This document shows, in pieces, positions 12,072-60,543 of a stretch of DNA of 64,000 nucleotides. Position 1 is the stretch's first letter. Each line of letters opens with the position of its first letter. Made by a program: the position numbers and the translations under genes. The stretch covers positions 231,489 to 295,488 of the forward strand of contig NZ_KB898664.1 in NCBI RefSeq assembly GCF_000377765.1. Reading direction: 5' to 3'. This DNA comes from Gracilibacillus lacisalsi DSM 19029 (GTDB lineage Bacteria > Bacillota > Bacilli > Bacillales > Amphibacillaceae). The notes under the pieces are model-generated. The model made no database searches. It was given only the letters and a program-made list of their open reading frames with translations, and was not told where the DNA came from.

Positions 12072-12183
12072 GCCAACTTCCCTTTCCGTGGGGTTTGTCC
12101 TTCAGCTAACTTTTTCGAGCAAAATCCGCTCGAAAAAGTGGATCTTCAGGCCAAACACTTCCCACAGGAGTGAAAGTTGGCGC
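12072..12183. repeat. Palindromic repeat, family B, copy 1
   Basis: The outer arms CCAACTT/AAGTTGG enclose CTTTCCGTGGGG and CCCACAGGAG. The core reads CTTCAGCTAACT, hairpin TTTTTCGAGC/GCTCGAAAAA, then AGTGGATCTTCAG. Related copies are at 16237-16328, 55613-55722 and 60404-60543, with the same flanks but different central hairpins. Confidence 0.85.
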
Positions 12184-12200
12184 CTACGCTTAAATCTGCT

Positions 12201-12407
12201 CTACAACGCTAGCATGAAGTAATACAGTTGCTTTTATCATTACTAATAGCAATTCTTCACTTTTTCTATTGTAAAAAAATCAACCTAATACTTATGATAA
12301 GAATTGTTGCACCTTCTCATAGCAAAGTAATTAGTCGAAGCGTTGCAATTATACATCAAACCTTTTAAAATAACTACTTCGCTTAACAACGTCATTACAC
12401 TGATTTT
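12201..12407 (+). repeat. Intergenic host repeat, copy 1 (empty site)
   Basis: From CTACAACGCTAGCATG through AAATCAACCTAATACT to AAAATAACTACTTCGCTTAA and CTGATTTT this block aligns in order with the reverse complement of 16166-16450. The other copy carries an extra palindrome of about 90 bases at the position of TAATTAGTC here (12330-12340). With the preceding palindrome it fills nearly all of the 526-base gap 11944-12469; I see no gene in it. Confidence 0.8.
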
Positions 12408-12427
12408 ATACTTCTTTCCATACAAGC

Positions 12428-12457
12428 AAAAGACTTCCATGGTATTGGAAGTCTTTT
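12428..12457 (-). terminator. Terminator of the DUF2515 gene
   Basis: AAAAGACTTCC and GGAAGTCTTTT pair perfectly around an eight-base loop. On the minus strand the stem ends in TTTT; it lies just after the stop of the leftward gene. Confidence 0.75.
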
Positions 12458-12469
12458 AATCATGGTTAC

Positions 12470-13558
12470 TTATTTGCTTAGTGGTTCTTTAGCAAGGATA
12501 GCAACCTCCATCTTCTCCAATGATACACAATATTCATCTTGAATATCTCCATTTACTTTGGAAGGATCTTTTTGTAAATAGTGAATCACTCTCCAATTGG
12601 AATACCAGTCGCCTTTTTCTGCTGGTTGCTGTTCAACATTACTCCAAGCATTCTCTAAGGAAGGACTGTACAAACGGTTTGCTCCAGGTTTTAATTGGCA
12701 TCCTTCTAGCCTTTGTTGAAAAGTTTCGTCAGGGTTGGATTCGTTGATGTCATTAAAAATGTCTGGCCAGTAGTCTTTCCTTGACCCTGTGTGTGGTTGC
12801 CGCATTGCCATATCATAAATGTCGGAGAAGAAATTATCATCAAATAATAATTGATACAACCGTTTACCTAATAGAATTCGCTCCTTTAAAGAAGCAAATT
12901 GATGTACAGATTGCCCGACTAGTTTAACGTGCTTTCCATCATTGAAGGGAAACAGTATTTGATTCAGTTGCAATAACTCCTGCATTTTAAATTCTACCGA
13001 TTCCAACAATGTAGCTTGATATTCTTTGTTCTGAATGACTCTGCCTTCGATATAGTTTTGTTCGTTAATAATAAGTGCGACAGTTATCAGGTAATTATCT
13101 TTCTTTTGATAATAATGATCCCACATCACCTTCATAAAATAAGATATACCGAATTGTGGAAGTAAATAGAATAAATTTTTATTTGCTTTTTTACTCTCTT
13201 CATATAACAGCAATTGAGGATAGGCGTCATGAAAAATCAGCCAATTACTCCGTTCTAAAAATGCAAAAAAATAAGCTTGCTGCTCTTTAGTCATGAGCCG
13301 TGTCAATAGGCTTCCCTTCAAATCAGTCATGTTCCATCCGGCATTTCGGGACACCATATGTGCCAGAAATGCCCATTCGATTTCAGGATTTCTTTTAAAA
13401 AATGCAAGATATGCTTTCGTTCTAGTAACGTTATTCAGATTATTTTCCCTTGTCTGTCCTTTGATAAATTGTACCAGTTTTGCTTCATCGTCTGTAAGGC
13501 TGTCAAAGTCAGTAAAGGAATCTTTGTTTTGCTGTAATGTTTTTTTTATTGACTTCAA
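12470..13558 (-). CDS. DUF2515 family protein (YppC-like)
   Basis: A protein of 362 residues from the first standard start, a TTG at 13558. The segment TKAYLAFFKRNPEIEWAFLAHMVSRNAGW and the end of the protein match the DUF2515 group, which includes B. subtilis YppC; the role is unknown. There are no membrane or signal segments. The only strong ribosome site (GGAGG at 13604-13600) lies 40 bases upstream of this TTG and eight bases before an in-frame ATA at 13591, with IFNKWKKLPTDL in frame between them. The true protein may therefore start at 13591 with a non-standard codon and have 373 residues. Confidence 0.8.
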   Translation of the reverse strand: MKSIKKTLQQNKDSFTDFDSLTDDEAKLVQFIKGQTRENNLNNVTRTKAYLAFFKRNPEIEWAFLAHMVSRNAGWNMTDLKGSLLTRLMTKEQQAYFFAFLERSNWLIFHDAYPQLLLYEESKKANKNLFYLLPQFGISYFMKVMWDHYYQKKDNYLITVALIINEQNYIEGRVIQNKEYQATLLESVEFKMQELLQLNQILFPFNDGKHVKLVGQSVHQFASLKERILLGKRLYQLLFDDNFFSDIYDMAMRQPHTGSRKDYWPDIFNDINESNPDETFQQRLEGCQLKPGANRLYSPSLENAWSNVEQQPAEKGDWYSNWRVIHYLQKDPSKVNGDIQDEYCVSLEKMEVAILAKEPLSK

Positions 13559-13768
13559 ATCAGTAGGTAATTTTTTCCATTTGTTAAATATTCGTGATCC
13601 CTCCTTTATTATCTTTATGTTTAGGTTATGTATCCATACGATTATGTTTACTATATGAAAAGGAATTTATACAATTAGGTGATAATGAATGGATTCTAAG
13701 CTAAATATATTTCATTAACTAGAGTGCTTTGTAGATAGGTTATGTTTAACAAAAGAGGGGAATTACAT

Positions 13769-13802
13769 AAAAAAATATAGGGATGAACGTACATCCCTAT
13801 AA
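13769..13802 (-). terminator. Terminator of the zinc-ribbon gene
   Basis: TATAGGGATG and CATCCCTATA pair around six bases. On the minus strand a run of T follows, just after the stop of the leftward gene. Confidence 0.8.
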
Positions 13803-13807
13803 TAGGT

Positions 13808-14053
13808 TTAGCCAAAAAATAAGTCCAAAATGTTGGATCCTGTAGTAGATTCTTTATTATAAAATTCAGAGTAACCACAGTCCTCACAATAGACCACAAG
13901 AAATCGATTATTTTGCACATCAAACATTTTGGAGAGACCTGTTCCAGTCATTGCTACTTCTTTTTGTGCTGCTCTAGTACTTCCGCATTTAATACAACCG
14001 TTGTGTTCCACTATGTTCATACCTCCTAAATTGCTAACTGAATACATTTTCAT
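13808..14053 (-). CDS. Small zinc-ribbon protein
   Basis: An 81-residue protein with two CxxC knuckles, CIKC near residue 20 and CEDC near residue 57, followed by GYSEFYNK, the arrangement of the nucleic-acid-binding zinc-ribbon proteins of bacilli. The first ATG is preferred since AGGAGAG lies at good spacing. A second ATG (14020) directly abuts an AGGAGGT and would leave too little room. Partners and function are unknown; it shares its direction with the DUF2515 gene but has its own terminator. Confidence 0.7.
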   Translation of the reverse strand: MKMYSVSNLGGMNIVEHNGCIKCGSTRAAQKEVAMTGTGLSKMFDVQNNRFLVVYCEDCGYSEFYNKESTTGSNILDLFFG

Positions 14054-14174
14054 AAAGTATTCTCTCCTATTGTCTACGATTCAGATATCAATATGTTTCA
14101 TTTTTTGTGAACAAAATCATCATTTCAACTTTCGTTTACCTGTTAAAATAAGATTAATAAAAAATAGGAAGTGA

Positions 14175-14300
14175 ACATAATGCGACATTGCAACAATTGA
14201 AATATGTAATTGAAGTGCTATAACAGATGGGGAATTCCGTCGCTCATGGTGGCATTTAGATTTTATGCAAATGTACATGGAGCAGAAGATTAAAAAATGA
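14175..14300 (+). pseudogene. Possible remnant of a LysR-type regulator gene
   Basis: One frame reads TLQQLKYVIEVL and then hits a stop; this is the typical first helix of LysR regulators (LQQLKYVxEV). What follows is broken by stops in all frames up to a terminator at 14371. Only a dozen residues support this, so it may be chance. Confidence 0.25.
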
Positions 14301-14370
14301 TTACTAGATTAAAAGAGTGGACTTAAGGATTATTTTTTCGAGTAGGTATGGAAGTCGGCTATAAGTCCTA

Positions 14371-14421
14371 TAACGAGTTAGAAAGTGTATGTTGTTTCGT
14401 CACTTTTTAACTCGTTTTTTT
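14371..14421 (+). terminator. Orphan Rho-independent terminator
   Basis: AACGAGTTAGAAAGTG pairs with CACTTTTTAACTCG (one mismatch) and is followed by seven T. No intact gene lies upstream on this strand, which supports a decayed gene before it. Confidence 0.75.
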
Positions 14422-14449
14422 GCTTGATAATCATTTCGTCAAGAATGAA

Positions 14450-14476
14450 TTGAAATTATCAAGCATATACTATAAT
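14450..14476 (+). promoter_or_regulatory. Promoter of the SpoIIS toxin locus
   Basis: A perfect TATAAT at 14471 with TTGAAA 15 bases before it; spacing is short but the -10 box is ideal. It lies 80 bases upstream of the toxin start. Confidence 0.5.
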
Positions 14477-14557
14477 AAGCACTTTTGGAAAAAATAGGGC
14501 ATTAACGTCTTTTTGGAAAAATCTATCTTCTATACAGGAGAGAGGGTGTGAATAAAG

Positions 14558-15448
14558 ATGGAGAAAGAAACAGTTATTATATCAATTCTGGTAGGGGTTC
14601 TCCTGTTGTTTATTTTATTCGTATACATCCAAAGTTTACGGAGTTTCCATGATAAAGAAGATAATCGTTTTACTGAAAATCTATATCAATATAGAAAAAC
14701 TTTGTATTTTTTATTTGTCTTAGTGATAGGGGCTTTGTGGTTAGTTGAAATCATTTCTATTGACGATTGGCAAAAACTAGTGATTTTAGCTGGAATGGCA
14801 GTATTTATTGATATATTTGTATTTTCTACGCCAACAATAAAGAAGATTTGGAAGACAGAATTTCAAAGCTATGATCCATTAAAAACATATATACAAGAGA
14901 ATAGTTTGATAGAAGAAAAGCAACAAGATAAGCTGAATTATTTCTCCCAATTGCTGCAAATCGCTCCATTTATTAAATCCGATATTGATAAGAAACAGCT
15001 TGATTTTCCAGATTCACTTAATTTATTTCTAAGTTACTATGCAGATACTTTTGGTTTACGTGTTCACCTTTATGAGGTGAAACCGAAAGACCTTGAAACA
15101 GAGTATGAACCTATTGATATTTTTATAAAAACGATTCAAACGATAAAGCAAACACACACATTGGATTGGGAAAGTATGCTGGACAACTTGGTGATAGACA
15201 ATGAAGATAATATTGAAAGGGTAATTATGGAAACATTATGGAACGGAGATATTGTGGCATTAGATCGTGAAGAAAAACATGGAAAAGGTATGGCACACAT
15301 ATGTCCTGCTTTTGTAGGCGAAAATCATACGTTTATTTTATTTATTGAGGAAATACATGAAAGAGTTTATGAGATTGATGCATTATTTATCACCAATCTA
15401 GCTTGTCTTTTCTGTTTTCTTGAAGATGAAAAATTAGTGACAAATTAA
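14558..15448 (+). CDS. spoIISA: SpoIISA family membrane toxin
   Basis: A 296-residue protein with three N-terminal membrane helices (about residues 6-28, 48-66, 73-92) and a soluble C-terminal domain. The segment YRKTLYFLFVLVIGALWLVE, and after it DIFVFSTPTIKKI, aligns by eye with B. subtilis SpoIISA, as does the end (IDALFITNLACLFCFLE). SpoIISA damages the membrane and is blocked by the small proteins SpoIISB and SpoIISC. This one is about 50 residues longer than the B. subtilis protein, mainly in the cytoplasmic GAF-like domain. It has AGGAGAGAGGGTG before the ATG, and two small basic ORFs follow. Confidence 0.82.
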   Translation: MEKETVIISILVGVLLLFILFVYIQSLRSFHDKEDNRFTENLYQYRKTLYFLFVLVIGALWLVEIISIDDWQKLVILAGMAVFIDIFVFSTPTIKKIWKTEFQSYDPLKTYIQENSLIEEKQQDKLNYFSQLLQIAPFIKSDIDKKQLDFPDSLNLFLSYYADTFGLRVHLYEVKPKDLETEYEPIDIFIKTIQTIKQTHTLDWESMLDNLVIDNEDNIERVIMETLWNGDIVALDREEKHGKGMAHICPAFVGENHTFILFIEEIHERVYEIDALFITNLACLFCFLEDEKLVTN

Positions 15449-15556
15449 ATAAAAAAGTAATAAATCGGGAGTTATTCCCGTAAAATGATGAAGAGTATCT
15501 TAAAGTCGAGGTAATTTAAGTAAGTTGATGTAAAGAAGTTGAGGAGGAGGAGTTTT

Positions 15557-15769
15557 GTGATTGAGACAGTGATAGGAGCCAATTTAAAAAGAGATGAAAA
15601 GAAGGAACTTAAATCACATAATGTGAATACACTATACCAAGAAACCACTCCCTTGAGTGATATTCTAAGTCGTAAGAAATCACCAATTACACAAATAGCG
15701 GATGCATCTAAAACCCGATATACGAAAGATTTGGAGAAGTTAAGGCGAAAAGCATTAAAAAAGTTATAA
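15557..15769 (+). CDS. Small basic protein, candidate SpoIISB-type antitoxin
   Basis: A 70-residue protein starting at GTG with GGAGGAGGAG ahead of it, one of the strongest ribosome sites in the window. It is rich in Lys, Arg, Ser and Thr with no membrane segment, and ends KDLEKLRRKALKKL, a likely amphipathic helix. I see no clear match to SpoIISB in sequence, but position, size, charge and likely disorder fit an antitoxin that wraps the toxin domain. Alternative: unrelated small protein. Confidence 0.55.
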   Translation: MIETVIGANLKRDEKKELKSHNVNTLYQETTPLSDILSRKKSPITQIADASKTRYTKDLEKLRRKALKKL

Positions 15770-15868
15770 TGGAGAAGCGACCCTTTTTTCTAAGTAATGT
15801 GATAAGGGAGATGGGTTGTATTTTTTTTTGTTAAAAAGTAAGAAGATTGATGAGGAGAGATGGAAGAC

Positions 15869-16024
15869 ATGACTAAAATCAAAAAGGAAAGCACCGATCT
15901 CATCAAACGAAAAAAATTTCCTAAAGTTACACAATGGAAAGGCAAGACTAGAGAAGAAAAGCGTCATCAAGCTATGTTAAATCAAATTAAGAAATTACAA
16001 AAAGATGATAGGACTTATTTATAA
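15869..16024 (+). CDS. Second small basic protein, candidate SpoIISC-type antitoxin
   Basis: A 51-residue, strongly basic protein (MTKIKKESTDLIKRKKF then VTQWKGKTREEKRHQAML) with GAGGAGAG upstream; an in-frame ATG at 15860 is too close to that site. B. subtilis spoIIS encodes two small antitoxins after the toxin, and this ORF would be the second. The evidence is position, size and charge only. Confidence 0.5.
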   Translation: MTKIKKESTDLIKRKKFPKVTQWKGKTREEKRHQAMLNQIKKLQKDDRTYL

Positions 16025-16076
16025 TCTTAATTCTAACGATGTGATGATTCGGCTTTAAGCAAAAAGGAGTGCTGTT

Positions 16077-16127
16077 GTGAGACAAGTAAATAGCAGAACG
16101 TATCAAGACACTTGGATTAAATTTTGA
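16077..16127 (+). CDS. Possible 16-residue ORF ending inside a terminator
   Basis: GTG preceded by AAAGGAGTGCT opens a 16-codon frame (RQVNSRTYQDTWIKF) whose stop lies in the loop of the next terminator. It may be a truncated third small gene of the SpoIIS locus. Confidence 0.25.
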   Translation: MRQVNSRTYQDTWIKF

Positions 16128-16147
16128 CTTTTATCCAAGTGTTTTTT
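16107..16147 (+). terminator. Terminator of the SpoIIS-like locus
   Basis: ACACTTGGAT pairs with ATCCAAGTGT around a 16-base loop and is followed by TTTTTT. Confidence 0.8.
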
Positions 16148-16165
16148 AGCCAGTAAAGAAAGCAT

Positions 16166-16450
16166 AAAATCAGCGCAATGCTTGTGTTAAGCGAAGTAGT
16201 TATTTTGACATGTTTAATGTATATTTGCCATGTCGCGACTAATTATTTTCCGCGGGCACGGCTTCAACTAACTTTGCAAAGTGGATTTTTGGTTCATGCT
16301 ATTCTCGCAGGCGTCACCGTAATTAGTCTTCCTTAGAGGTGTAACAATTCTTGTCAGAAGTAATAGGTTGACTTTTTTACAATAACAGGTTGTACATCGC
16401 TTTTTGTAAGTGAAAACATTCGTGTTATCAAATGCTAGCTAGCGTTGTAG
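16166..16450 (-). repeat. Intergenic host repeat, copy 2 (inverted, filled site)
   Basis: The reverse complement aligns with 12201-12407 from CTACAACGCTAGC to CGCTGATTTT, including AAGAATTGTTACACC and AAAATAACTACTTCGCTTAA. The alignment is interrupted by the palindrome at 16237-16328. With the terminator before it, this accounts for the gap 16025-16507. Confidence 0.8.
16237..16328. repeat. Palindromic repeat, family B, copy 2
   Basis: Perfect outer arms GACTAATTA/TAATTAGTC enclose TTTTCCGCGGGCACGGCTTC, the shortened core AACTAACTTTGCAAAGTGGA, and CTCGCAGGCGTC. The central hairpin here is CTTTGCAAAG. It sits within the host repeat and is absent from the equivalent place at 12.3 kb. Confidence 0.85.
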
Positions 16451-16507
16451 AACATGAAATAACGAAGAAACCGATATAATTGATTTTATGATTTCTATTG
16501 GAATCAT

Positions 16508-17227
16508 CTATTCTATTCGCTTGCGAAAAATTCGTTCGAGAAAGGTAAGCCAAATAAGTGTAATCACATACCCGACCGAAATATTCCACCAGTAGTTCTC
16601 ACTTTCTGCTTCCATAAATATTTTCACTGGCCAGTAAACAGGAATAAGCATGGTAATTTTAATAATCGGGTGACTGATTAAATAATCTAGTAATGGTGCG
16701 AGAATCATTAAGTTAATTACTTTGGTAAGTGCTAATCCTTCTACTTTATTAGCAGCTAGACTCGCTAGCATCATTGTTATAATCGGAGCTTGTAATGCAA
16801 GTAATACAGCGACAGGGAGAAACGTGTTGAGCTTCCAAACGACAAGTCCCTGTAACAACACAACAGCAAAAGATATTAAAAAAGTAATGATAATCGGAGC
16901 TAATATTCTAGCGAAAAGATAACCTGTTTTCGTTATCGGTGTAACAGCATAAAAAAGTAGAACTCCTTCGTCTCGTTCATCCAAGATAATAAATCCATAA
17001 AGCATCCCGATCATCAGGGGAGTCATAAGTAATGCCAAACTGACAATAATCCGAAAGTGTGGTTGTAATGGGAAAGATGCATAAGTTAGGAGGATGTCAT
17101 GTAATACAGGTAAACCTAAACGGATTATTACGGATAATATTAATACACCAAATAAAGAGAATACTAATAATGGTTCGCGTTTGATGTTTTTTATATCGCC
17201 AATTGATAATAACAACATTTTCTTCAT
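16508..17227 (-). CDS. ABC exporter permease, second subunit
   Basis: A 239-residue membrane protein with six predicted helices, last gene of a four-gene leftward operon. GAGGTGAAG lies before the ATG at 17227, which begins MKKMLLLSIGDIKNIKREPLL; a longer upstream frame would overlap the previous gene and is rejected. The central motif LDERDEGVLLFYAVTPIT (ATPase coupling region) marks ABC-2-type permeases related to the fluoroquinolone exporter family. It would pair with the next permease and the ATPase to expel a drug or lipid; the substrate is unknown. Confidence 0.8.
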   Translation of the reverse strand: MKKMLLLSIGDIKNIKREPLLVFSLFGVLILSVIIRLGLPVLHDILLTYASFPLQPHFRIIVSLALLMTPLMIGMLYGFIILDERDEGVLLFYAVTPITKTGYLFARILAPIIITFLISFAVVLLQGLVVWKLNTFLPVAVLLALQAPIITMMLASLAANKVEGLALTKVINLMILAPLLDYLISHPIIKITMLIPVYWPVKIFMEAESENYWWNISVGYVITLIWLTFLERIFRKRIE

Positions 17228-17244
17228 TACATACTTCACCTCTG

Positions 17245-17946
17245 TCACGAAAAGATTTTTTTTCGTAAAAATCGTTGAAATGAATAATAGGTTAAGACAT
17301 AGGCACAACTGATCCATGGTATAAAGATTACTATCACATAGATATAATCCTGTACAGTAAGACTATCAAACGCTCCTTCTAAGAGAATGAGAATAGCTTG
17401 AGTTGGCAGCAAGTGTAACAATAACGAATCTGTTAGCTTAAAAAAGCTAAGTAATGGTAAATAAAAAATAATTATGAAAAGAGGTGATGTATATAAAAAC
17501 ATATTAACGTTATCAACGCGAACTGCTAGCGAAATTCCTAATAATGTAAAGAAAATTGAACATAACATAACCGCAATTAAAAATGGCAAGTAATCAACAT
17601 GAAGTTGATGAACAGCAATAAAAATGATTGAACTTGATACCGTTGCCAGTATTGTTAAAGATAAAACCTTACTGATTAAATAATCATGAATACGAATCGG
17701 ACTAACAAATAATGTGTTAAAGATTGATTGGTCTTTTTCAAGTAAAACTAGTCCTCCAACAAAGAAAAATCCTAAAACAGAGGGATCGGTAAATATAATT
17801 AAGATCGATGTTTGTTTGACATAGGAAGCTGGCACTAATAATAACAAGCAGATATAGACGATACTGACGAGTGCATAAGCAGCATAAAAACCATGACGAA
17901 ATTGAAACCGAATATCAAATGTAAAAAGTTCAAGATGTTTCATCAT
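17245..17946 (-). CDS. ABC exporter permease, first subunit
   Basis: A 233-residue protein with six hydrophobic helices and the coupling motif LVLLEKDQSIFNTLFVSPIR, matching the ABC-2-type permeases seen beside fluoroquinolone export ATPases. Its ATG overlaps the end of the ATPase gene by four bases, showing translational coupling. The second permease begins about 17 bases after its end. The two together form the membrane part. Confidence 0.85.
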   Translation of the reverse strand: MMKHLELFTFDIRFQFRHGFYAAYALVSIVYICLLLLVPASYVKQTSILIIFTDPSVLGFFFVGGLVLLEKDQSIFNTLFVSPIRIHDYLISKVLSLTILATVSSSIIFIAVHQLHVDYLPFLIAVMLCSIFFTLLGISLAVRVDNVNMFLYTSPLFIIIFYLPLLSFFKLTDSLLLHLLPTQAILILLEGAFDSLTVQDYIYVIVIFIPWISCAYVLTYYSFQRFLRKKIFS

Positions 17947-18794
17947 AATATCCTTCCTGTCACCTTCATAAATACATCTTCCAATGTCGCTTCTTGTGTA
18001 TGCATAGTGACGATTTCATAATGTGATAATATGTGTTGAAAATGCTGGTTTTCATATAAATTATTGAGTGAAAAAAGTTCTCTTTTAATTCCAGATTGAC
18101 ATCGGTATTCAACTTGTAATGATTTTTCTCCATATCTTACTTTTAATTGTTTTGGTTGATCAATCAAAGCTATTTCTCCATCCACCATAAAAGCGACACG
18201 ATCACAAATTTTATCAGCCGTATCCATACTATGTGTGGTGATGATTACTGTTTTTCCTTTTTCTTTTTCCATTAAAATAAGTTCGCGCAGTTTCTTGGCA
18301 TTGACTGGATCTAACCCTGAAGTAGGTTCATCTAAAAATAAAATATCAGGATTGTTTAACAATACACGACAAAAATTCAAGCGCATTTTCATTCCTTTGG
18401 AATAGTTACTGAACCGTACATGCGCAGCATCTGTTAGTCCCACATTTTTTAAAAGTTTTTGTGGATTTTGAGTCTTTCTTTTATACAGTTTGCTGAAAAA
18501 TTGTAGATTTTCTAATCCGGTGAACTTTTGATAAAAATTAGGAAACTCAAATCCGACCCCAATCCGTTCATAATAGTCAGCACTTAATTGATCAAGTTCT
18601 TGCTGATTGATTTGGACCTTTCCTCGATACCCTTTTAAAATACCAATTAAGATATTTTGTGTCGTACTTTTCCCTGCACCAGATGGTCCTAAAAATCCAA
18701 AAATTTCTCCTCTCGCTACTTCAAATGAAATATCATGAATCGTATCTTTTGTTTCACCTGGATACCGATAGGCTAAATTTTCAACATAGATCAT
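17943..18794 (-). CDS. ABC exporter ATP-binding protein
   Basis: A 283-residue ATPase. Walker A is GPSGAGKST near residue 37, the signature is NYSKGMKMRL, Walker B is DILFLDEPTSGLDP, and the switch His is in ITTHSMD. The C-terminal 70 residues are the regulatory extension of drug-type exporters. The start is ATG 18794 (MIYVENLAYRYPGE) with AGGAGGAAG upstream; it overlaps the end of the TetR gene by 14 bases, so the regulator and pump are co-transcribed. Confidence 0.9.
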   Translation of the reverse strand: MIYVENLAYRYPGETKDTIHDISFEVARGEIFGFLGPSGAGKSTTQNILIGILKGYRGKVQINQQELDQLSADYYERIGVGFEFPNFYQKFTGLENLQFFSKLYKRKTQNPQKLLKNVGLTDAAHVRFSNYSKGMKMRLNFCRVLLNNPDILFLDEPTSGLDPVNAKKLRELILMEKEKGKTVIITTHSMDTADKICDRVAFMVDGEIALIDQPKQLKVRYGEKSLQVEYRCQSGIKRELFSLNNLYENQHFQHILSHYEIVTMHTQEATLEDVFMKVTGRIL

Positions 18795-19401: not shown

Positions 19402-19422
19402 TATAGCACCACCTTTTATGAA

Positions 19423-19453
19423 TTTATGAATAATATATTTTTTTATTCATAAA
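19423..19453. promoter_or_regulatory. TetR operator palindrome
   Basis: TTTATGAATAA, nine bases, then TTATTCATAAA: a perfect inverted repeat in the promoter region of the TetR gene. A half copy TTTATGAAT overlaps its outer side. Confidence 0.7.
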
Positions 19454-25706: not shown

Positions 25707-25848
25707 TTCTTATCCAGAGAGACGGAGGGATTTGGCCTTATGATGTCTCAGCAACCAGTCATTTTTGACACGGTGCTAATTCCAATAGATAAGAAGATTG
25801 ACTTTCGTTCATGGTAAAGGCCTTCTTCTTAGAAGGTCTTTTTTTACT
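25707..25848 (+). ncRNA. SAM-I (S-box) riboswitch with terminator
   Basis: The conserved aptamer elements are present in order: AGAGAGACGGAGGGATTTGG, TCTCAGCAACC, and CGGTGCTAATTCCAA. P1 is formed by TTCTTATC and GATAAGAA. The expression platform ends with the terminator AGGCCTTCT/AGAAGGTCT followed by seven T at 25817-25848. With SAM bound, transcription of the methyltransferase gene should stop here. Confidence 0.95.
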
Positions 25849-31850: not shown

Positions 31851-32093
31851 TAAGCATATAAACCTTCTCGAGAAAGCTAGATGAAGGATAAAACCCACGG
31901 AAAAACAACAGAAAAAACATTTTTTTCACAAAACCGCATATTTCTGTTTCTTTTCTGAATACATATTAATCAATTTACCAAACATCCATAAACTGCGAAA
32001 AACTATTGTTTTTTTCTTCCAATCATTCTTTAGGAAAGTAAGATAACGTGATATCATAGTAATAAAATTATCCATTTAAAAGGAGGATATGTT

Positions 32094-51277: not shown

Positions 51278-51316
51278 AGTGTTTATGCAATAAACGAGCG
51301 GGAGTGTGATCAGTCA

Positions 51317-52444: not shown

Positions 52445-52485
52445 GCAATCCTTGATGAAAATTATTATAAAGTGAGTTGATCTGT

Positions 52486-53436: not shown

Positions 53437-53440
53437 AGGG

Positions 53441-54193: not shown

Positions 54194-54197
54194 AGGA

Positions 54198-55535
54198 ATG
54201 CCTACAGTAGCATTTCATACATTAGGCTGTAAAGTAAACCATTATGAAACAGAAGGTATATGGCAGAAATTCAAAAATGAAGGTTATGAGCGAGTAGATT
54301 TCGATCATCATGCTGATGTTTATGTTATCAATACGTGTACGGTTACCAATACAGGGGATAAAAAAAGCCGACAAGTTATTCGTCGTGCCATTCGTAGCAA
54401 TCCGGAAGCAGTAGTTTGTGTAACAGGTTGCTATGCTCAAACCTCGCCAGGAGAGATTATGGAGATTCCAGGCGTTGATATAGTTGTAGGTACACAAGAT
54501 CGCGGTAAGATGATTCAATATATTGAAGAACATCAAGAGCACCGCCAACCAATCAATGGTGTATCCAATATTATGAAAAATCGTGTTTTTGAAGAAATGG
54601 ATGTGCCTCAATTCTCAGATCGGACACGTGCGTCACTAAAAATCCAAGAAGGATGTAATAACTTCTGTACGTTCTGTATTATCCCATGGTCTCGTGGACT
54701 ATTACGCTCTAGAGAACCAGAGAATGTACTGAATCAAGCACGTCAACTGGTAGATGCGGGTTATAAAGAAATTGTTCTAACAGGTATTCATACAGCTGGA
54801 TATGGAGAAGACATGAAGGATTATAACTTTGCACAGCTATTACGTGACTTAGAATCCAAAGTAGACGGTTTAAAACGAATCCGTATTTCGTCAATTGAAG
54901 CGAGTCAAATTACGGACGAAGTGATCGAGGCTTTGGATGAGTCTAAAAAAGTAGTACCACATCTTCATATTCCATTACAATCAGGTTCAGATACTGTGTT
55001 GGAAAGAATGCGTCGTAAATATACAACAGACTTCTATAAAAAACGTGTAGCCAGAATACAAAAGGCCTTACCGCATTTAGCGATAACATCAGATGTAATA
55101 GTCGGATTTCCTGGTGAAACAGAGAAAGAATTTGAGGAGACAATGAATTTTGTCAAAGAAATTGGTTACTCTGAATTACACGTGTTCCCTTTCTCTAGAA
55201 GAACTGGTACGCCTGCAGCACGGATGGACAACCAAGTAGATGATGAAGTGAAAAATCGTCGCGTTCAAGCTTTAATTGACCAATCAAATGAACAAGCATT
55301 AGCATATGCAAAAAATTATGAAAATGAAGTGGTCGAGGTTATTCCAGAGGAAACATTTGATGCTGATCAACCCAATATGTTGGTAGGTTATTCGGATAAC
55401 TATTTAAAAGTAAAATTCGAAGGAACGAAAGATATGATCGGTGAGATTGTTCGCGTGAAAGTAACAAAGGCTGGTTATCCGTATAACGAAGGTCAATTTG
55501 TCCGAGTAATGGATGACGCCGCATTATCTGTTTAA
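54198..55535 (+). CDS. mtaB: tRNA ms2t6A37 methylthiotransferase MtaB
   Basis: A 445-residue radical SAM methylthiotransferase starting four bases after rsmE with GAGGTGAAGG. UPF0004 domain first (HTLGCKVNHYETEGIWQ, VINTCTVT, VTGCYAQ: three cluster Cys), then the radical SAM motif CNNFCTFCIIPWSRG near residue 154, then a C-terminal TRAM domain. It converts t6A37 to ms2t6A in ANN-decoding tRNAs. The B. subtilis equivalent is YqeV. Confidence 0.95.
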   Translation: MPTVAFHTLGCKVNHYETEGIWQKFKNEGYERVDFDHHADVYVINTCTVTNTGDKKSRQVIRRAIRSNPEAVVCVTGCYAQTSPGEIMEIPGVDIVVGTQDRGKMIQYIEEHQEHRQPINGVSNIMKNRVFEEMDVPQFSDRTRASLKIQEGCNNFCTFCIIPWSRGLLRSREPENVLNQARQLVDAGYKEIVLTGIHTAGYGEDMKDYNFAQLLRDLESKVDGLKRIRISSIEASQITDEVIEALDESKKVVPHLHIPLQSGSDTVLERMRRKYTTDFYKKRVARIQKALPHLAITSDVIVGFPGETEKEFEETMNFVKEIGYSELHVFPFSRRTGTPAARMDNQVDDEVKNRRVQALIDQSNEQALAYAKNYENEVVEVIPEETFDADQPNMLVGYSDNYLKVKFEGTKDMIGEIVRVKVTKAGYPYNEGQFVRVMDDAALSV

Positions 55536-55538
55536 ACC

Positions 55539-55785
55539 AAAGAGGCTGGGACAAAAGAATAATTAGATAGGAAAAATCCGAACATTAAAGTCTGAGTACA
55601 CATACCGCTTCGGCAAAATACTTCGCTTTCCGTAGGCGATCTTTAGCTAACTGTGTGAAGAAAAACACTTCACACAGAGGATCTTCGGCATGCGCTCCTC
55701 ATGAGGATTCTGCGTATTTTGCCTACGCTTAGTTCAGATTGTTCGGATTCTCATTCTACCTATTTAGTTATGTCTCAGCCTCTTT
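55539..55785. repeat. 247-base near-continuous palindrome after mtaB
   Basis: The outer arms AAAGAGGCTGGGACA/TGTCTCAGCCTCTTT enclose TAGATAGG/CCTATTTA, AATCCGAACA/TGTTCGGATT and a family B palindrome at the centre. It can fold into one giant cruciform or stem and may also end mtaB transcription. It starts the 723-base gene-free stretch 55536-56258. Confidence 0.85.
55613..55722. repeat. Palindromic repeat, family B, copy 3
   Basis: Arms GCAAAATAC/GTATTTTGC; CTTTCCGTAGGCG, then CTTTAGCTAACT, hairpin GTGTGAAG/CTTCACAC, and AGAGGATCTTCGG. Same flanks as copies 1, 2 and 4 but another hairpin; it lies inside the 247-base palindrome. Confidence 0.8.
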
Positions 55786-55793
55786 TCTAGTAG

Positions 55794-55962
55794 GACAAGA
55801 AAGTATAAAATTTTGCGCAGATGTCTAGCTCCGAGCGCCCAAAAACTAGGCGACTTCACGAATCGCCCTCCGATAAGTCATCATTGGTTCGCTTTTCTCA
55901 GTGATTCCTTTATCTTAGTTGATTAGCTCTAGCTGCTACGTTTGCGGGTGCTGCGCTTTTCT
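55794..55962 (+). repeat. Intergenic repeat, family A, copy 1
   Basis: From AAGTATAAAATTTTGCGCAG through ATGTCTAGCTCCGAGCGCCC, AAAAACTAGGCGACTTCACG, AATCGCCCTCCGATAAGTCA to CAGTGATTCCTTTATCTTAG. Almost the same sequence stands at 60619-60790, and its first 100 bases at 56971-57085. Confidence 0.9.
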
Positions 55963-55979
55963 TATTATAAAAGCAACCG

Positions 55980-56055
55980 TGTAATTTCATGCTAGCGTTG
56001 TAGTTGAAGGGCAAGTCCCACGGAAAGGGAGTGAACAGCCGGAGTGATGGTCAAC
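55980..56055 (-). repeat. Partial family B half with the host-repeat end
   Basis: TTCATGCTAGCGTTGTAG is the reverse complement of the start of the 12201 repeat. It is followed by CCCACGGAAAGGGA and AGCCGGAGTGATGGT, matching the reverse complement of 12058-12095. Thus one half of the 12-kb arrangement recurs here inverted. Confidence 0.7.
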
Positions 56056-56157
56056 GAGTCGACATATTTCATAATGGCTACTAGAGAAATCGCAGGTCTA
56101 GTTAGCATTTAGTAATAAGCATTGGGCAAGGTTTGCCGGTTTTTCTTATTAAAACGG

Positions 56158-56186
56158 TTGACCTATTTTTACTGGTATATTATAAT
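56158..56186 (+). promoter_or_regulatory. rpsU promoter
   Basis: TTGACC, a 17-base spacer and a perfect TATAAT, 73 bases before rpsU. Confidence 0.8.
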
Positions 56187-56195
56187 TGCAAAGAG

Positions 56196-56217
56196 ACATA
56201 TGTATCTATACATATGT
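56196..56217. promoter_or_regulatory. Perfect palindrome at the start of the rpsU transcript
   Basis: ACATATGTAT-CT-ATACATATGT begins about ten bases after the -10 box, so it is the first element of the 5' leader. It could be a DNA operator or an RNA hairpin for control of S21 synthesis. Confidence 0.5.
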
Positions 56218-56258
56218 TTGATTAATTTTGTTGATGCTTCGGAGGGAGGGAAATTAGC

Positions 56259-56435
56259 ATGTCTAACACAACTCGCGTTCGTAAAAACGAGTCACTTGAA
56301 GATGCTCTTCGTCGCTTTAAACGTAGTGTATCAAAATCTGGTACATTATCTGAATATCGTAAGCGTGAATTTTATGAAAAACCTAGTGTTCGCCGTAAGA
56401 AAAAATCGGAGGCAGCTAGAAAGCGTAAATTTTAA
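56259..56435 (+). CDS. rpsU: 30S ribosomal protein S21
   Basis: A 58-residue, very basic protein: [40 protein letters not shown], and the tail [18 protein letters not shown], the standard S21. GGAGGGAGGG precedes the ATG. A longer overlapping frame in another phase here is a shadow. It is followed by yqeY after 18 bases, as in B. subtilis. Confidence 0.97.
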
Positions 56436-56453
56436 AGAGGGTGTAATGAAATA

Positions 56454-56900
56454 ATGGCAATCGTTGAACTTTTGAACCAGGATATGAAGCAGGCGATGAA
56501 GGATAAAGATAAAGTTAAATTAGGTGTAATTAGAATGGTCAAAGCATCGATGCAAAATGAAGCCATTAAATTACAGAAAGATGCATTGTCTGAAGAAGAA
56601 GAATTAACGGTTTTAGCGAGAGAGCTAAAGCAAAGAAAAGATTCCCTCCATGAATTTAAAGAAGCTGAACGCGAAGATCTTGTAAGCAAGTTGGAAGATG
56701 AAATTAACATAATACAAGCTTATATGCCTGAACAACTTTCTGATGAAGAGTTAGAGGAAATAGTTGTTCAGACGATCGAGGAAGTTCAAGCTCAATCAAA
56801 AAAAGATATGGGAAAAGTGATGAGTGCGCTAATGCCTAAAGTAAAAGGTAAAGCAGAAGGCTCAAGAGTGAATCAATTGGTTCAAAAGAACTTATCATAA
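56454..56900 (+). CDS. yqeY: GatB/YqeY domain protein
   Basis: A 148-residue all-helical protein, [20 protein letters not shown], then [32 protein letters not shown] and the [20 protein letters not shown] tail found at the end of GatB, where it contacts tRNA. The stand-alone form is of unknown function and follows rpsU across bacilli. AAGAGGGTG lies before the ATG. Confidence 0.95.
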
Positions 56901-56927
56901 ACGGACAAAATGAATTCATTCATCTAT

Positions 56928-56966
56928 AAGACCCTTGACTTATTGAATAAGTTAAGGGTCTTTTTA
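56928..56966 (+). terminator. rpsU–yqeY terminator
   Basis: AAGACCCTTGACTTA pairs with TAAGTTAAGGGTCTT (one mismatch) and is followed by TTTTT. Confidence 0.9.
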
Positions 56967-56970
56967 ACAA

Positions 56971-57085
56971 GACAAGAAAATAAAAAATTTGCGCAGATGT
57001 CTAGCTTAGCGCGCCCAAAAACTAGGCGACTTCACGAATCGCCCTCCGATAAGTCATCATCGGTTCGCTTTTCTTACAAGGATAG
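56971..57085 (+). repeat. Intergenic repeat, family A, copy 2 (shortened)
   Basis: TTTGCGCAGATGTCTAGCTT, CGCCCAAAAACTAGGCGACT, TCACGAATCGCCCTCCGATA and TCGGTTCGCTTTTCT match copies 1 and 3, then similarity stops. It fills most of the gene-free stretch 56901-57296; the rest is A/T-rich leader. Confidence 0.9.
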
Positions 57086-57296
57086 GAAGTATAAAGGTTG
57101 GTTCTCTTTCCTTAACAAATGTGATGGTAGGGTATATGTATATACAAATATATAAGTGAAAAGTTTTTCTCGTAGATATAAGTATGATAAACTGAATGCG
57201 TTGACATAAGTTTTTTGTCCATTAATGAAACTTTTTATACATATTTTTCGTATGAATACTTAGATGTCAAAGCACTTAGTGAAGGGAGGGTGGGAT

Positions 57297-58631
57297 TTGA
57301 AAAAATACGTATCTGTGTTGTTGGTCTCGATATCGATCATTACAGCTCTATTTACCTTCACCAATAGTTTTCAAACGGAAGTACTTGCTGAAGACAGTGG
57401 AGAAGGTAAACTTGTTTATGTTATACCTATAGAAAACGAGGTAGAACGTGGCTTAGAAGCGTTTATTAGAAGGACAACAACGGAGGCAACTGAAAATAAT
57501 GCAGATCATATAATTTTCGAAATTAATACCCCTGGAGGTCGAGTAGATGCTGCAGAATATATTGGCGAAATATTGCAGGATTTAGAGATCGAAACGACTT
57601 CATTTATTACAGTCAGAGCACTTTCTGCAGGCTCTTATATTGCTTTAAATACGGATAATATTTATATGAAACCTCAAACAAGCATGGGAGCAAGTGGTGT
57701 CATTAATTCAGATGGTACGGCAGCTGACCAAAAAGCACAATCAGCATGGGTTGCAAGTATGAGAGGGGCAGCTAGCTCTAAAGACAGAGATCCATTATAT
57801 GCAGAAGCTATGGCAAATGCTGAAATTGATTTACCTGAATATGGTGCCCCTGAGGGTGATTTCCTAACTTTGGATGCTAATAATGCAGTGGAAGTAGGTT
57901 ATGCCCAAGGGATTGTAAGTCACAGGGCAGAGTTATTAAGTAATCTATCCTTAGCAGATGCGGAAATCATTGAAACTGAACCAACTGCTGCAGAAGGTTT
58001 AGCTCGTTTTTTGACAAATCCGATAGTTGTACCGATACTGTTATCGTTAGCAAGTATTGGTTTAATTGTGGAATTGTATTCCCCTGGTTTCGGGATTCCA
58101 GGCTCCATTGGAATAGCCTCATTGGTTTTATATTTTTATGGACATATCATAGCTGGTCTAGCAGGTTATGAAGCAATTGTTTTACTTATATTAGGGATTG
58201 TTTTAATTATTATTGAAATATTTGCACCGGGGGGGATTCTCGGCTTCATTGGTATTGGTGCGATAGTAGCTTCATTATTTATGTCGACTGATGATCCTGG
58301 GCATATGGCGATGAGTATTGCTATTGCACTTATTGCAAGTATTATTGTAGCTGTTATTTTATTTAAAACGATTGGTTTGGAGAAAGGGGTTTTCAGGCAT
58401 GTTATTCTAAAAGACTCAACAACTACAGAGCAAGGATATGTCTCTAGTGTAAACCGATTAGAATTAATTGGTCAGGAAGGTGTTACGGTTACACCACTAA
58501 GGCCATCAGGAACTGCAGAGTTTGGTGATGAAAGGCTAGATGTGGTGTCAGAAGGAGCGTTTATTGATGTGGACACACCGATAAAAATCATTAAAGTCGA
58601 AGGTTCACGTCTTGTAGTAAGAAAAATATAA
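57297..58631 (+). CDS. NfeD-family membrane protein with SppA-like protease domain (YqeZ)
   Basis: A 444-residue protein starting at TTG after GGGAGGG. A signal peptide (VSVLLVSISIITALFTF, cut near VLAED) leads to a ClpP/SppA-like domain (about 40-235) with NTPGGRVDAAEYI and LSAGSYIAL, where Ser is the likely nucleophile. Five membrane helices and a C-terminal NfeD beta-barrel (about 375-444: EQGYVSS to VVRKI) follow. The gene is coupled with floA, and such NfeD proteins work with flotillin-like proteins in membrane microdomains. Confidence 0.9.
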   Translation: MKKYVSVLLVSISIITALFTFTNSFQTEVLAEDSGEGKLVYVIPIENEVERGLEAFIRRTTTEATENNADHIIFEINTPGGRVDAAEYIGEILQDLEIETTSFITVRALSAGSYIALNTDNIYMKPQTSMGASGVINSDGTAADQKAQSAWVASMRGAASSKDRDPLYAEAMANAEIDLPEYGAPEGDFLTLDANNAVEVGYAQGIVSHRAELLSNLSLADAEIIETEPTAAEGLARFLTNPIVVPILLSLASIGLIVELYSPGFGIPGSIGIASLVLYFYGHIIAGLAGYEAIVLLILGIVLIIIEIFAPGGILGFIGIGAIVASLFMSTDDPGHMAMSIAIALIASIIVAVILFKTIGLEKGVFRHVILKDSTTTEQGYVSSVNRLELIGQEGVTVTPLRPSGTAEFGDERLDVVSEGAFIDVDTPIKIIKVEGSRLVVRKI

Positions 58632-58657
58632 ACTTTTAATTTCTAGGAGGATGTAGT

Positions 58658-59656
58658 ATGGAAGGATTTGGAGATATTTTTCCAATTATTATTATTGGGC
58701 TGATTGTCATTGCAGTTGCTATTCTATTTACCTTTATTCCGGTAATGCTGTGGATTAGTGCACTTGCAGCAGGTGTTAGAGTAAGTATTTTTACGTTGGT
58801 TGGGATGCGCTTGAGAAGGGTTGTTCCTTCGCGAGTTATTAACCCGCTAATTAAAGCGCACAAAGCAGGGTTAGATGTTACGACAAACCAATTAGAAAGC
58901 CACTTTTTAGCTGGTGGTAATGTTGACCGAGTTGTTAATGCGTTAATTGCTGCACAACGAGCAAATATTGAGTTGAGTTTTGAGCGTTGTGCTGCGATTG
59001 ACTTAGCTGGTCGTGACGTATTAGAAGCGGTACAAATGAGTGTTAATCCGAAAGTAATTGAAACACCTTTTATTGCAGGTATTTCAATGGATGGTATTGA
59101 AGTAAAAGCGAAAGCACGAATTACTGTTCGAGCAAACATTGATCGACTCGTCGGTGGTGCTGGTGAAGATACAGTTATTGCCCGTGTTGGTGAAGGTGTC
59201 GTAAGTACTATTGGTAGCTCAGAAGCACATACGAAAGTGCTAGAAAATCCCGACTCTATTTCTCATAACGTTTTAAACCGTGGATTAGATGCTGGTACTG
59301 CTTTTGAAATCTTATCAATCGATATTGCCGATGTTGACATCGGTAAAAATATTGGTGCGATTTTACAAACAGACCAAGCCGAAGCAGATAAAAACATCGC
59401 CCAAGCAAAAGCAGAAGAACGTCGTGCAATGGCAGTTGCCCAAGAACAAGAAATGGTTGCAAAAGTTCAAGAAATGCGTGCTAAAGTGGTCGAAGCCGAA
59501 GCAGATGTACCAAAGGCACTTGCAGAAGCCTTGCGTTCTGGCAATATGGGTGTCATGGATTATATGAATTATAAGAATATTGATGCTGATACAGATATGC
59601 GTGATTCTATTGGTAAATTAACAGAAACAGACAACGAAGAAGAAGACAACAAGTAA
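58658..59656 (+). CDS. floA: FloA flotillin-like lipid-raft scaffold
   Basis: A 332-residue protein. A single membrane segment ([20 protein letters not shown]) is followed by a SPFH-like domain with [20 protein letters not shown] and [19 protein letters not shown], then Ala/Glu-rich coiled coil ([21 protein letters not shown]) and an acidic tail. It matches B. subtilis FloA (YqfA). CTAGGAGG precedes the ATG, 26 bases after the NfeD gene. It organises fluid membrane domains and affects signalling proteins. Confidence 0.96.
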
Positions 59657-59735
59657 GGATCCTCATAGGGGCTTTCTTGGTTAGAAGGCGTAAATTGCTA
59701 ATAGCTGTTGAATAGTCCCTGAAAGGAAGATGTAT

Positions 59736-60245
59736 ATGGATGAATTGTTAAGTTTTATTGTTCCGATAATAGCAATAGTGATTTGGCTTTTCGGACTGTT
59801 AAAATCTAAAGAGGAAGAGCAGAATCAAAAGAGACCACAAAGACCTGTTCAACAAAAAACTAGTCATACGCAACAGCCAAGAACCGAAACAACAACACAA
59901 ACTGTTCCTGATTTTCAAACAATCGGTACCAATACTGATTCAACGGATTCTGGACAAGAGACATTTGCTCAACAAAAGGAAAAGCAAATGGAAAAGTTAA
60001 AGGAAAAAATCCATCACGCAGAAAATATTCGGGATAAATCGAAAGACCAGGAGCTAGGTAAGCATGATGCCATTAAGGATGGTCCGCCGCCAAGAGCGTA
60101 TCGAAAAGATAGTAAAGAACAGATTTCTTTATCAGTTGAAAAAAACTTAACATCAAAAGGAATAGCTCAAGGTATTATTATGTCAGAAGTATTGGGACCG
60201 CCACGCGCCTATCAAAAAAGAAAATATTATCGGAACTATCGTTAA
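59736..60245 (+). CDS. Membrane-anchored hydrophilic protein in the yqfB position
   Basis: A 169-residue protein with one N-terminal helix (LLSFIVPIIAIVIWLFGLL) followed by a Gln/Lys/Thr-rich, likely disordered cytoplasmic or external part and a basic end. Two copies of a short motif, GPPPRAY and LGPPRAY, lie near residues 110 and 160. The second ATG is chosen because AAAGGAAG is properly spaced from it. Placed between floA and yqfC, where B. subtilis has yqfB, but I cannot show homology. Function unknown. Confidence 0.6.
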   Translation: MDELLSFIVPIIAIVIWLFGLLKSKEEEQNQKRPQRPVQQKTSHTQQPRTETTTQTVPDFQTIGTNTDSTDSGQETFAQQKEKQMEKLKEKIHHAENIRDKSKDQELGKHDAIKDGPPPRAYRKDSKEQISLSVEKNLTSKGIAQGIIMSEVLGPPRAYQKRKYYRNYR

Positions 60246-60278
60246 AAAAGTCGAATGGGAAACCATTCGACTTTTTTA
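60244..60278 (+). terminator. Rho-independent terminator of the nfeD–floA cluster
   Basis: AAAAAAGTCGAATGG pairs perfectly with CCATTCGACTTTTTT around GAAA; strong in both directions. Confidence 0.92.
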
Positions 60279-60403
60279 TGTTATAGGGAATTATGAAATT
60301 TCTTGTATTTGAACTCGCCACGGTGGAATAAGCCAAGTTACTACCTCGTATATATTAGAGTGGTGGTCAAGCTGTTGCCATTTTGAAAGCTAGCTTGTAC
60401 AGG

Positions 60404-60543
60404 AAACCATCGCTGCGGCTGTCCACTTCGACTCCTGTGGGATCAGCGTGATCTGAAGATCCACTTTTGTAAAGCGATCTTCTTTACAAAAGTTAGCTGA
60501 AGACACGCCCCACGGAAAGCGAAGTGGGCAAGCCGCAGCGGTT
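60404..60543. repeat. Palindromic repeat, family B, copy 4 (inverted)
   Basis: Arms CGCTGCGGCT/AGCCGCAGCG enclose CCACTTCGACTCCTGTGGGA and CCCCACGGAAAGCGAAGTGG. The core, read on the minus strand, is CTTCAGCTAACT, hairpin TTTGTAAAG/CTTTACAAA, AGTGGATCTTCAG. It belongs to the 629-base gene-free stretch 60246-60874. Confidence 0.85.

What the first reader, a model, noticed from the sequence alone, without database searches (positions are those of the whole stretch)
12072..60543. Palindromic repeat family with constant arms and a changing but always self-complementary central hairpin
Four copies (12072-12183, 16237-16328, 55613-55722, 60404-60543 inverted) share CTTTCCGNGGGC, CTTCAGCTAACT, AGTGGATCTTCAG and CNCAGGAGTC blocks. 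The central stem differs each time (TTTTTCGAGC/GCTCGAAAAA; CTTTGCAAAG; GTGTGAAG/CTTCACAC; TTTGTAAAG/CTTTACAAA) yet always pairs, as do the different outermost arms. Compensatory change across copies means the fold is under selection or is a product of the copying mechanism. Similar GC-rich intergenic blocks are known in Bacillaceae, but I know of no described function.
Basis: seen in the sequence. Interest (0 to 1): 0.75.

Follow-up and report, generated by a model that had tools for sequence, protein, structure and literature searches.

The report
Mobile palindromes that replace gene terminators
These repeats are small parasitic DNA palindromes found in many Bacillus relatives, and one of the four in this window appears to have jumped by removing the hairpin that ends transcription of a gene and putting its own hairpin in its place.

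Summary
The four copies belong to a very large family: at least 150 hits in this Gracilibacillus genome (a scoring cap), 17 of 17 Gracilibacillus genomes, 235 of 299 sampled genomes of the order. Centre and arms covary (32 of 43 pairs change on both sides).

The copies are cores inside larger mobile shells. The 55613 copy sits in a ~240-bp shell (55542-55782) whose ends match those of intact IS1182-family insertion sequences in Cytobacillus and Kurthia. Of seven sites of this shell type compared with Gracilibacillus suaedae, five were informative; at all five the species without the shell has a terminator-like hairpin there, and no target duplication was seen. Both flanks match at three, one flank at two. 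This resembles the published IS1272 stem-loop-replacing transposition (PMC5678879), here by a transposase-less element.

Copies 12072, 16237 and 60404 lie in other shells, whose starts follow a terminator in 20 of 24 cases; their enzyme is unknown. The changing centre fits palindrome-copying repair plus structural constraint (inference).

The parts
55542..55782 (+). Non-autonomous IS1182-family-type shell (~240 bp): left TIR GAGGCTGGGACAAAA (55542-55556), right TIR reading GAGGCTGAGACATA on the other strand (55769-55782), core hairpin inside
   Evidence: 11 related copies in G. suaedae (two of them partial or fused, L095 and L102) share the shell while flanks differ. TIR pair matches IS1182-family elements in L157 and L158. 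The orthologous G. suaedae site has a terminator-like hairpin instead.
55614..55723 (+). Core hairpin, copy C (degenerate boxes; centre TGTGTGAAG/CTTCACACA)
   Evidence: Model R1, 71.8 bits; sequence
11964..12419 (-). Second-type shell of copy A. Read on the minus strand it begins with a GAAAGTATAAAATC-like end (12402-12419) 8 nt after the host terminator 12428-12457 and ends in its own terminator-like hairpin (11975-11990) plus TTTTTTTCTTA at 11964
   Evidence: Coordinates. G. orientalis has no such insert: window 11939 and 12422 map to 8325 and 8346 of L050. A deleted relic in G. suaedae.
12070..12185 (+). Core hairpin, copy A (centre TTTTTCGAGC/GCTCGAAAAA)
   Evidence: Model R1, 97.7 bits. 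39 other matches at 91-96% identity listed in the genome; only 40 of 213 candidates were scored.
16157..16470 (+). Second-type shell of copy B (right end is an estimate), starting 9 nt after the T run of the host terminator 16109-16147
   Evidence: right limit judged from sequence shared with other copies
16239..16328 (+). Core hairpin, copy B, short centre ACTTTGCAAAGT without loop
   Evidence: Model R1, 44.4 bits
60377..60613 (+). Second-type shell of copy D with its own terminator-like 3' end (60584-60613); the left arm looks chimeric, so the left limit is uncertain
60417..60531 (-). Core hairpin, copy D (centre TTTGTAAAG/CTTTACAAA)
   Evidence: Model R1, 100.9 bits. 23 near-full-length matches at 96-100% identity in the genome, self included; only 40 of 207 candidates were scored.
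55798..55964 (+). Neighbouring S-type repeat with the same 5' end (AGAAAGTATAAAAT) and 3' end (TTTTCTTA) as the second-type shells, no core
60621..60794 (+). Second S-type repeat, directly after copy D's terminator-like end (right limit approximate)

Best explanation
The repeats are core palindromes (about 90-115 bp) carried by short, transposase-less mobile elements. The core consists of four conserved boxes around variable but complementary stems. In the window copy at 55542-55782 the carrier is a miniature relative of IS1182-family (IS1272-like) insertion sequences. It moves by stem-loop replacement: transposase supplied in trans takes the hairpin of an intrinsic transcription terminator as target, removes it, and leaves the element, itself a long hairpin, between the host's A-rich and T-rich flanks without target duplication. 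The element should then act as the gene's terminator. SHOWN: a large dispersed family; covariation; TIR match to intact IS1182-family elements; hairpin swap at orthologous sites; no evident target duplication (by eye). INFERRED: trans action of an IS1182-family transposase, terminator function after the swap, and that the changing centre is kept self-complementary by palindrome-templated repair (quasi-palindrome correction, recalled) together with a need for hairpin structure. Copies A, B and D ride in other shells that lie just 3' of terminators; the enzyme of these is unknown.
For: TIRs: C shell GAGGCTGGGACAAAA / GAGGCTGAGACATAA. Of four plasmid relatives fetched, L157 (Cytobacillus) and L158 (Kurthia), annotated IS1182 family transposase, have GAGGCTGGGACAAAA left and GAGGCTGGGACATAA right; L159 (Mesobacillus, no gene annotated between) has GAGACTGGGACAAAA and GAGGCTGGGACATAA; L156 (Terribacillus) shows none at up to 2 mismatches. 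A Gracilibacillus remnant (L129) has one such TIR beside three gene fragments that match NF033551 IS1182 at 4.9e-16, 4.1e-6 and 2.2e-5, below the whole-protein cut-off as expected of fragments. Hairpin swap: 5 of 5 informative orthologous sites, out of 7 examined; the five lost hairpins fold at -13.4 to -19.0 kcal/mol, with 0 or 1 of 300 mononucleotide shuffles as stable. Covariation. Perfect-palindrome conversions in 7 loci. IS1272 stem-loop-replacing transposition without TSDs (PMC5678879: outline, abstract and passages).
Against: No IS1182-family transposase domain (PF13751) in this draft genome; it is one of 13 of 17 Gracilibacillus genomes without one, so the enzyme is not shown to be present now. 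At two of the five swap sites (L088, L092) only the right flank matches exactly; at L088 the left differs by some 70 bp of short repeats, at L092 the left flank matched only dispersed repeats. L090 is occupied in both species and L091 had no match. Three of the four window copies are not in IS1182-type shells and their movement is unexplained. In L126 an intact IS1182-family element sits in a core arm between what look like 9-bp direct repeats, so not every family member behaves like IS1272. Repair-driven centre change rests on 7 converted copies.
Confidence: 0.75

Rival explanations
1. The core is a structured RNA (small RNA or processing signal), and the covariation reflects selection on the RNA fold.
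For: Strong covariation. The core scores against the Rfam small RNA family tsr24 of S. aureus, best E 7.7e-5, 35.9 bits. Two invariant T-G pairs favour one strand.
Against: All tsr24 matches seen are below the gathering score (50 bits). At gathering level the only window hit is a SAM riboswitch. Two-core elements carry the core in opposite orientations (51 of 53 adjacent pairs). Copies are dispersed and mobile. No expression data were available.
Confidence: 0.12
2. Second-type shells (A, B, D, S) move by an enzyme that inserts just 3' of terminator T runs, as group IIC introns do (recalled), and the core is their transposition end; IS1182-type elements only captured the core later.
For: 20 of 24 shell starts lie 4-18 nt after a terminator-like T run, same direction; the lenient test scores 15% of random windows. 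The second-type shells read share both ends.
Against: The core also occurs in an IS1182-type shell here and in L149 from another genus, so it is not tied to the second type. No enzyme and no clean empty site was found. The motif search itself selected shells by their 5' end.
Confidence: 0.2
3. REP/RAYT-type repeats mobilised by a Y1 transposase.
For: High copy number, hairpins, convergent pairs resembling BIMEs.
Against: No GTAG or CGTC tag seen at the foot of the core stem in alignment A1 (by inspection); cores are about 90-115 bp, whereas PMC3733652 gives REPs as 20-40 bp (abstract start). A Y1 gene was not searched for.
Confidence: 0.04
4. The terminator differences between the two species are ordinary divergence or recombination, and no hairpin was replaced by transposition.
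For: Two of five sites match on one side only; intergenic regions of the two species differ a good deal.
Against: At W 55540, the L014 site and L089 the sequence outside hairpin and element matches on both sides (L089 and the L014 site carry one further insertion in this genome), and the same repeat family occupies the hairpin position each time.
Confidence: 0.1

Closest known systems
IS1272 (IS1182 family) stem-loop-replacing transposition, PMC5678879
   Same: Target is an inverted repeat that is removed, no target duplication, target sequence not conserved (passages)
   Different: Here a transposase-less ~240-bp element carrying a conserved core palindrome; the five informative targets look like terminators; a comparison between species, no observed event. 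The IS1272 TIR letters were not seen in the paper (figures not held).
Bacterial MITEs (general)
   Same: Short, repeated, TIRs shared with an IS family, no coding capacity
   Different: Nested palindrome with conserved mismatched boxes and a covarying centre; stem-loop swap in place of a TSD-making insertion
Rfam tsr24 (RF02577), S. aureus small RNA
   Same: Consensus shows the same boxes (GACuCCuGaGGGA...GCCGAAGA-like...GGaAAGCGA) and aligns to the core
   Different: Below gathering score (35.9 against 50); short centre; treated there as an RNA gene
Rfam Bacillaceae-1 RNA (RF01690)
   Same: Found nested inside one core of Rossellomorea (L053:11875-12015), where the usual centre would be
   Different: A different hairpin; not detected at the window copies
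Stem-loop families Bhal-1, Sta-1, Efa-1 (PMC2267715, passages)
   Same: Intergenic repeated hairpins in related Bacillota; possibly the same superfamily
   Different: Sequences not available to me, so identity could not be tested

Membership tests
IS1182-family MITE (copy C, 55542-55782) | TIRs shared with an autonomous element of the family | tested here: met
   L157 and L158; L156 did not show the TIR
IS1182-family MITE (copy C, 55542-55782) | No transposase gene inside | tested here: met
   ~240 bp; no ORF of 80 aa or more listed between 55535 and 56122
IS1182-family MITE (copy C, 55542-55782) | Dispersed copies with unrelated flanks | tested here: met
   Window copy and 11 G. suaedae copies
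IS1182-family MITE (copy C, 55542-55782) | Autonomous partner in the same genome | tested here: not met
   PF13751: 0 matches in this draft genome; 4 of 17 Gracilibacillus genomes have one. Usual for MITEs but not a strict requirement (recalled).
Stem-loop-replacing transposition | A hairpin at the target is lost on insertion | tested here: met
   5 of 5 informative sites of 7 examined; matched on both sides at 3
Stem-loop-replacing transposition | No target site duplication | tested here: met
   No direct repeat at the junctions, read by eye; no statistical test
IS1182-family MITE (copies A, B, D) | GAGGCTGGGACA-type TIRs | tested here: not met
   In the window the motif (up to 1 mismatch) occurs only at 55542 and 55771
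REP/RAYT | GTAG or CGTC tag at the stem foot | tested here: not met
   Alignment A1, by inspection; tag named in PMC3733652 title and listing
Rfam tsr24 | Score at or above gathering (50 bits) | tested here: not met
   Best 35.9 bits; no hit at gathering level in window
Rfam Bacillaceae-1 | Score at or above gathering in the window | tested here: not met
bcr1 (Bacillus cereus group) | Sequence similarity | not tested
   Only papers listed

The most novel reading that the evidence does not exclude
Many Bacillaceae transcription terminators are transposon-made: a structure-guided system swaps host terminator hairpins for its own palindromes. Because each palindrome is again a hairpin target, repeated swaps build nested palindromes (shell, arm, core, centre) in which every layer pairs and every layer can differ. 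The nesting seen, for example a Bacillaceae-1 RNA hairpin where a core centre would be, would be a record of successive swaps.
Probability: 0.35. Interest if true: 0.85.

Novelty: new variant of a known kind. Interest (0 to 1): 0.64.

Why it matters
Stem-loop replacement was proposed from IS1272 in Staphylococcus aureus (PMC5678879). Here genome comparison points to it in a transposase-less element that swaps terminator-like hairpins and stays between the host's A-rich and T-rich flanks. That would make an insertion nearly harmless and would explain why the element must be a palindrome (inference). The core is present in 235 of 299 sampled genomes of the order, so the idea can be tested at many sites. 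It also suggests that some annotated small RNAs (tsr24, Bacillaceae-1) may be parts of such elements.

Tried and rejected
Pattern TAGCTGAAGN{20,50}CGGAAAG: 0 hits, the gap range was badly chosen. Autonomous partner in this genome by PF13751: none. IS1182-family copies in G008 (10 copies, ends of 8 viewed): other TIRs by eye (AAGGGGCTGTCGCA; CGGGACCAGTGAAAA), so not the partner of the C shell. Literature: searches for the box letters (2 unrelated papers), Bacillaceae intergenic repeats, IS1182/IS1272, Bacillaceae-1, tsr24, bcr1, terminator-targeting insertion sequences (0 papers) and EFAR listed no paper that I could see to describe this family; apart from four papers opened in passages I saw listings only, and only the held open library was searched. 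Integron attC sites were considered from recall and not tested. The exact left end and insertion mode of second-type shells (A, B, D, S) could not be fixed for lack of clean empty sites.

Results against the reading: of 7 C-type sites examined, L090 carries an element in both species, in opposite orientation, and L091 had no match; L088 and L092 match exactly on one side only. 12 of 136 cores could not be parsed and were dropped before the centre count. In the fixed register, the eight representatives with CC- or TTCC-type boxes (two Gracilibacillus, two Rossellomorea, one Thalassobacillus, three Halobacillus) score only 0-5 of 8, and one misparsed converted copy 2 of 8; most look paired in a shifted register by eye, which I did not count. 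Of six loci of other genera printed (L143, L145, L146, L147, L149, L150), the TIR at up to 1 mismatch is on both sides in L149, on one side in L143 and L145; L147 and L150 have more diverged versions by eye, L146 none seen. L142, L144, L148 and L151 were scanned without a hit and not read. No control genomes outside the order were searched with model R1.
Full report
OBSERVATION. The four copies are present as described and are found by a covariance model at 97.7, 44.4, 71.8 and 100.9 bits. The boxes are degenerate in the 16237 and 55613 copies. The window lies in a draft genome of 4.41 Mb in 44 contigs. The genus Gracilibacillus is inferred from the nearest protein relatives, G. suaedae at 93% and G. 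orientalis at 83%.

FAMILY SIZE. A DNA search with the 12072 copy lists 41 matches: itself, 39 others at 91-96% and its own reverse strand. The 60404 copy lists 93 matches, many of them partial or reverse-strand. Both searches scored only 40 of more than 200 candidates. Model R1 was built from 34 cores of Gracilibacillus, Halobacillus, Rossellomorea and Thalassobacillus. It hits 17 of 17 Gracilibacillus genomes; in this genome all 150 scored candidates of 1018 match, so 150 is a lower bound. It hits 235 of 299 sampled genomes of the order, from 94 of 116 genera, with stricter filters. Genomes outside the order were not searched with it.

ANATOMY OF THE CORE. From outside: variable arm; box 1 CTTTCCGYGGG; variable arm; box 2 (CTTCAGCTAAC, or GAGCCTCC in Halobacillus-type copies); variable centre stem and loop; box 3 (GTGGATCTTCAG, or GGGGTCTCA); variable arm; box 4 CCCRCAGGAGT; variable arm. 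The boxes pair imperfectly with conserved mismatches. The variable segments covary: 32 of 43 pairs change on both sides, covariation 0.359 against 0.146 in shuffles (0/500), 79.5% of cells paired against 35-54% in slid controls; the number of pair types does not exceed shuffles (220/500); the structure was written from this alignment, which favours it. Two box columns (19-101, 20-100) covary too. Inner stems: 888 of 992 positions paired in 124 parsed cores of 136; swapped partners 51%; 0 of 10,000 permutations. In 7 loci (L019, L034, L043, L092, L093, L112, L139) box 3 has turned into the exact complement of box 2. Template switching within a quasi-palindrome would give this (mechanism recalled, not tested); L034 looks like a hybrid of two elements.

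SHELLS. In the Gracilibacillus loci that I read by eye the core lies inside larger elements. (1) C shell: GAGGCTGGGACA TIRs; 11 related copies in G. suaedae. (2) A/B/D shells: 5' end (A/G)GAAAG(T/C)ATA(T/A)AAT, 3' end a terminator-like hairpin plus TTTTTCTTA, with one or two cores. (3) Shells with CATAAACTGCGAAGTAA-like ends. Of 53 adjacent core pairs under 500 bp apart, 51 are convergent (+,-), none (-,+), two parallel. At two loci the two species carry the same outer ends with different interiors.

THE C SHELL IS AN IS1182-FAMILY MITE. Elements annotated as IS1182 family transposase in Cytobacillus (L157) and Kurthia (L158) end in GAGGCTGGGACAAAA on the left and GAGGCTGGGACATAA on the right, the left/right asymmetry of the C shell; L159 (Mesobacillus) nearly so; L156 (Terribacillus) shows no such TIR. 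In Gracilibacillus G011 one such TIR lies beside a broken IS1182-family gene (L129; NF033551 at 4.9e-16, 4.1e-6 and 2.2e-5 for three fragments). Among six core loci of other genera that I read, L149 has the TIR on both sides and L143 and L145 on one side at up to 1 mismatch, L147 and L150 diverged versions by eye, L146 none.

HOW IT MOVES. I examined seven C-type sites in this genome and G. suaedae. At W 55540, G. suaedae has AAGACCATAGCAGGTATTCTGTTATGGTTTT where this genome has the element; outside, AAACCA and TTTTCTAGT are shared. At the L014 site the roles are reversed: this genome keeps AACACATGC...GCATGTGTT, and G. suaedae has a degenerate C-type element. At the sites of L088, L089 and L092, this genome has terminator-like hairpins where G. 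suaedae has C elements. L089 matches on both sides apart from an S-type insertion; at L088 and L092 only the right side matches exactly. L090 is occupied in both species, in opposite orientation; L091 had no match. The five hairpins fold at -13.4 to -19.0 kcal/mol, and 0 or 1 of 300 mononucleotide shuffles is as stable. No target duplication was seen by eye. The filled state is taken as derived, because the same repeat occupies sites whose hairpins differ in sequence (inference; no outgroup was compared at these sites). This matches the IS1272 model of PMC5678879 (outline, abstract and passages): targets are inverted repeats without common sequence, replaced without TSDs. The C element of the window folds as one long hairpin at -95.2 kcal/mol, between A-rich and T-rich flanks, so it should serve as a terminator after the swap (inference).

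WHAT IS NOT EXPLAINED. A, B and D are not in IS1182-type shells. Starts of second-type and S-type shells lie a few bases after terminators: 20 of 24, 4-18 nt after a T run, against 15% of 2000 random 60-base windows in the same lenient test. G. orientalis lacks the A shell. The enzyme and exact junctions are unknown. PF13751 has no match in this genome and matches in 4 of 17 genomes of the genus, so the element may be a relic here, or the enzyme may be missing from the draft.

KNOWN OR NEW. Rfam has no family at gathering level at these copies. The core aligns below threshold to tsr24 of S. aureus (best 35.9 against 50 bits), and a Bacillaceae-1 RNA hairpin stands where the centre of one Rossellomorea core would be. 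PMC2267715 (passages only) lists hairpin repeat families in B. halodurans, E. faecalis and S. aureus that could overlap, untested. Nine searches of the open library listed no paper that I could see to describe the box sequences. Verdict: the mechanism class is known; a terminator-swapping palindromic MITE with a covarying core is a new variant.

Noticed in passing
window 55798-55964 and 60621-60794: S-type repeats (TCTAGCTCCGAGCGCCC...) share both ends with the A/B/D shells but lack the core; they follow terminators or other elements in tandem.
   Followed up: partly
window 31867-31903: Fragment matching positions 12-48 of the 12072 copy at 86%, minus strand; a probable relic.
   Followed up: no
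window 25707-25795: SAM riboswitch (RF00162), 74.9 bits.
   Followed up: no
L126:1-260 and 1985-2110: Intact 504-aa IS1182-family transposase element (TIR GAGGCCGCTGAAAAA) inserted in the arm of a core, with CGACCGATC on both sides, apparently a 9-bp target duplication.
   Followed up: partly
L132, L133, L136 (G008): IS1182-family copies lie inside another dispersed repeat (TGAAACATGGGGACGGTTC...-like flanks on both sides).
   Followed up: no
L087:187-254: Bacillaceae-1 RNA hit (35.7 bits, gathering 35) within sequence resembling an S-type repeat, next to a C shell.
   Followed up: no
L106:6770-7170 against L139: Same CATAAACTGCGAAGTAA-type outer ends at one locus in two species with wholly different interiors and no core seen in either.
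   Followed up: no
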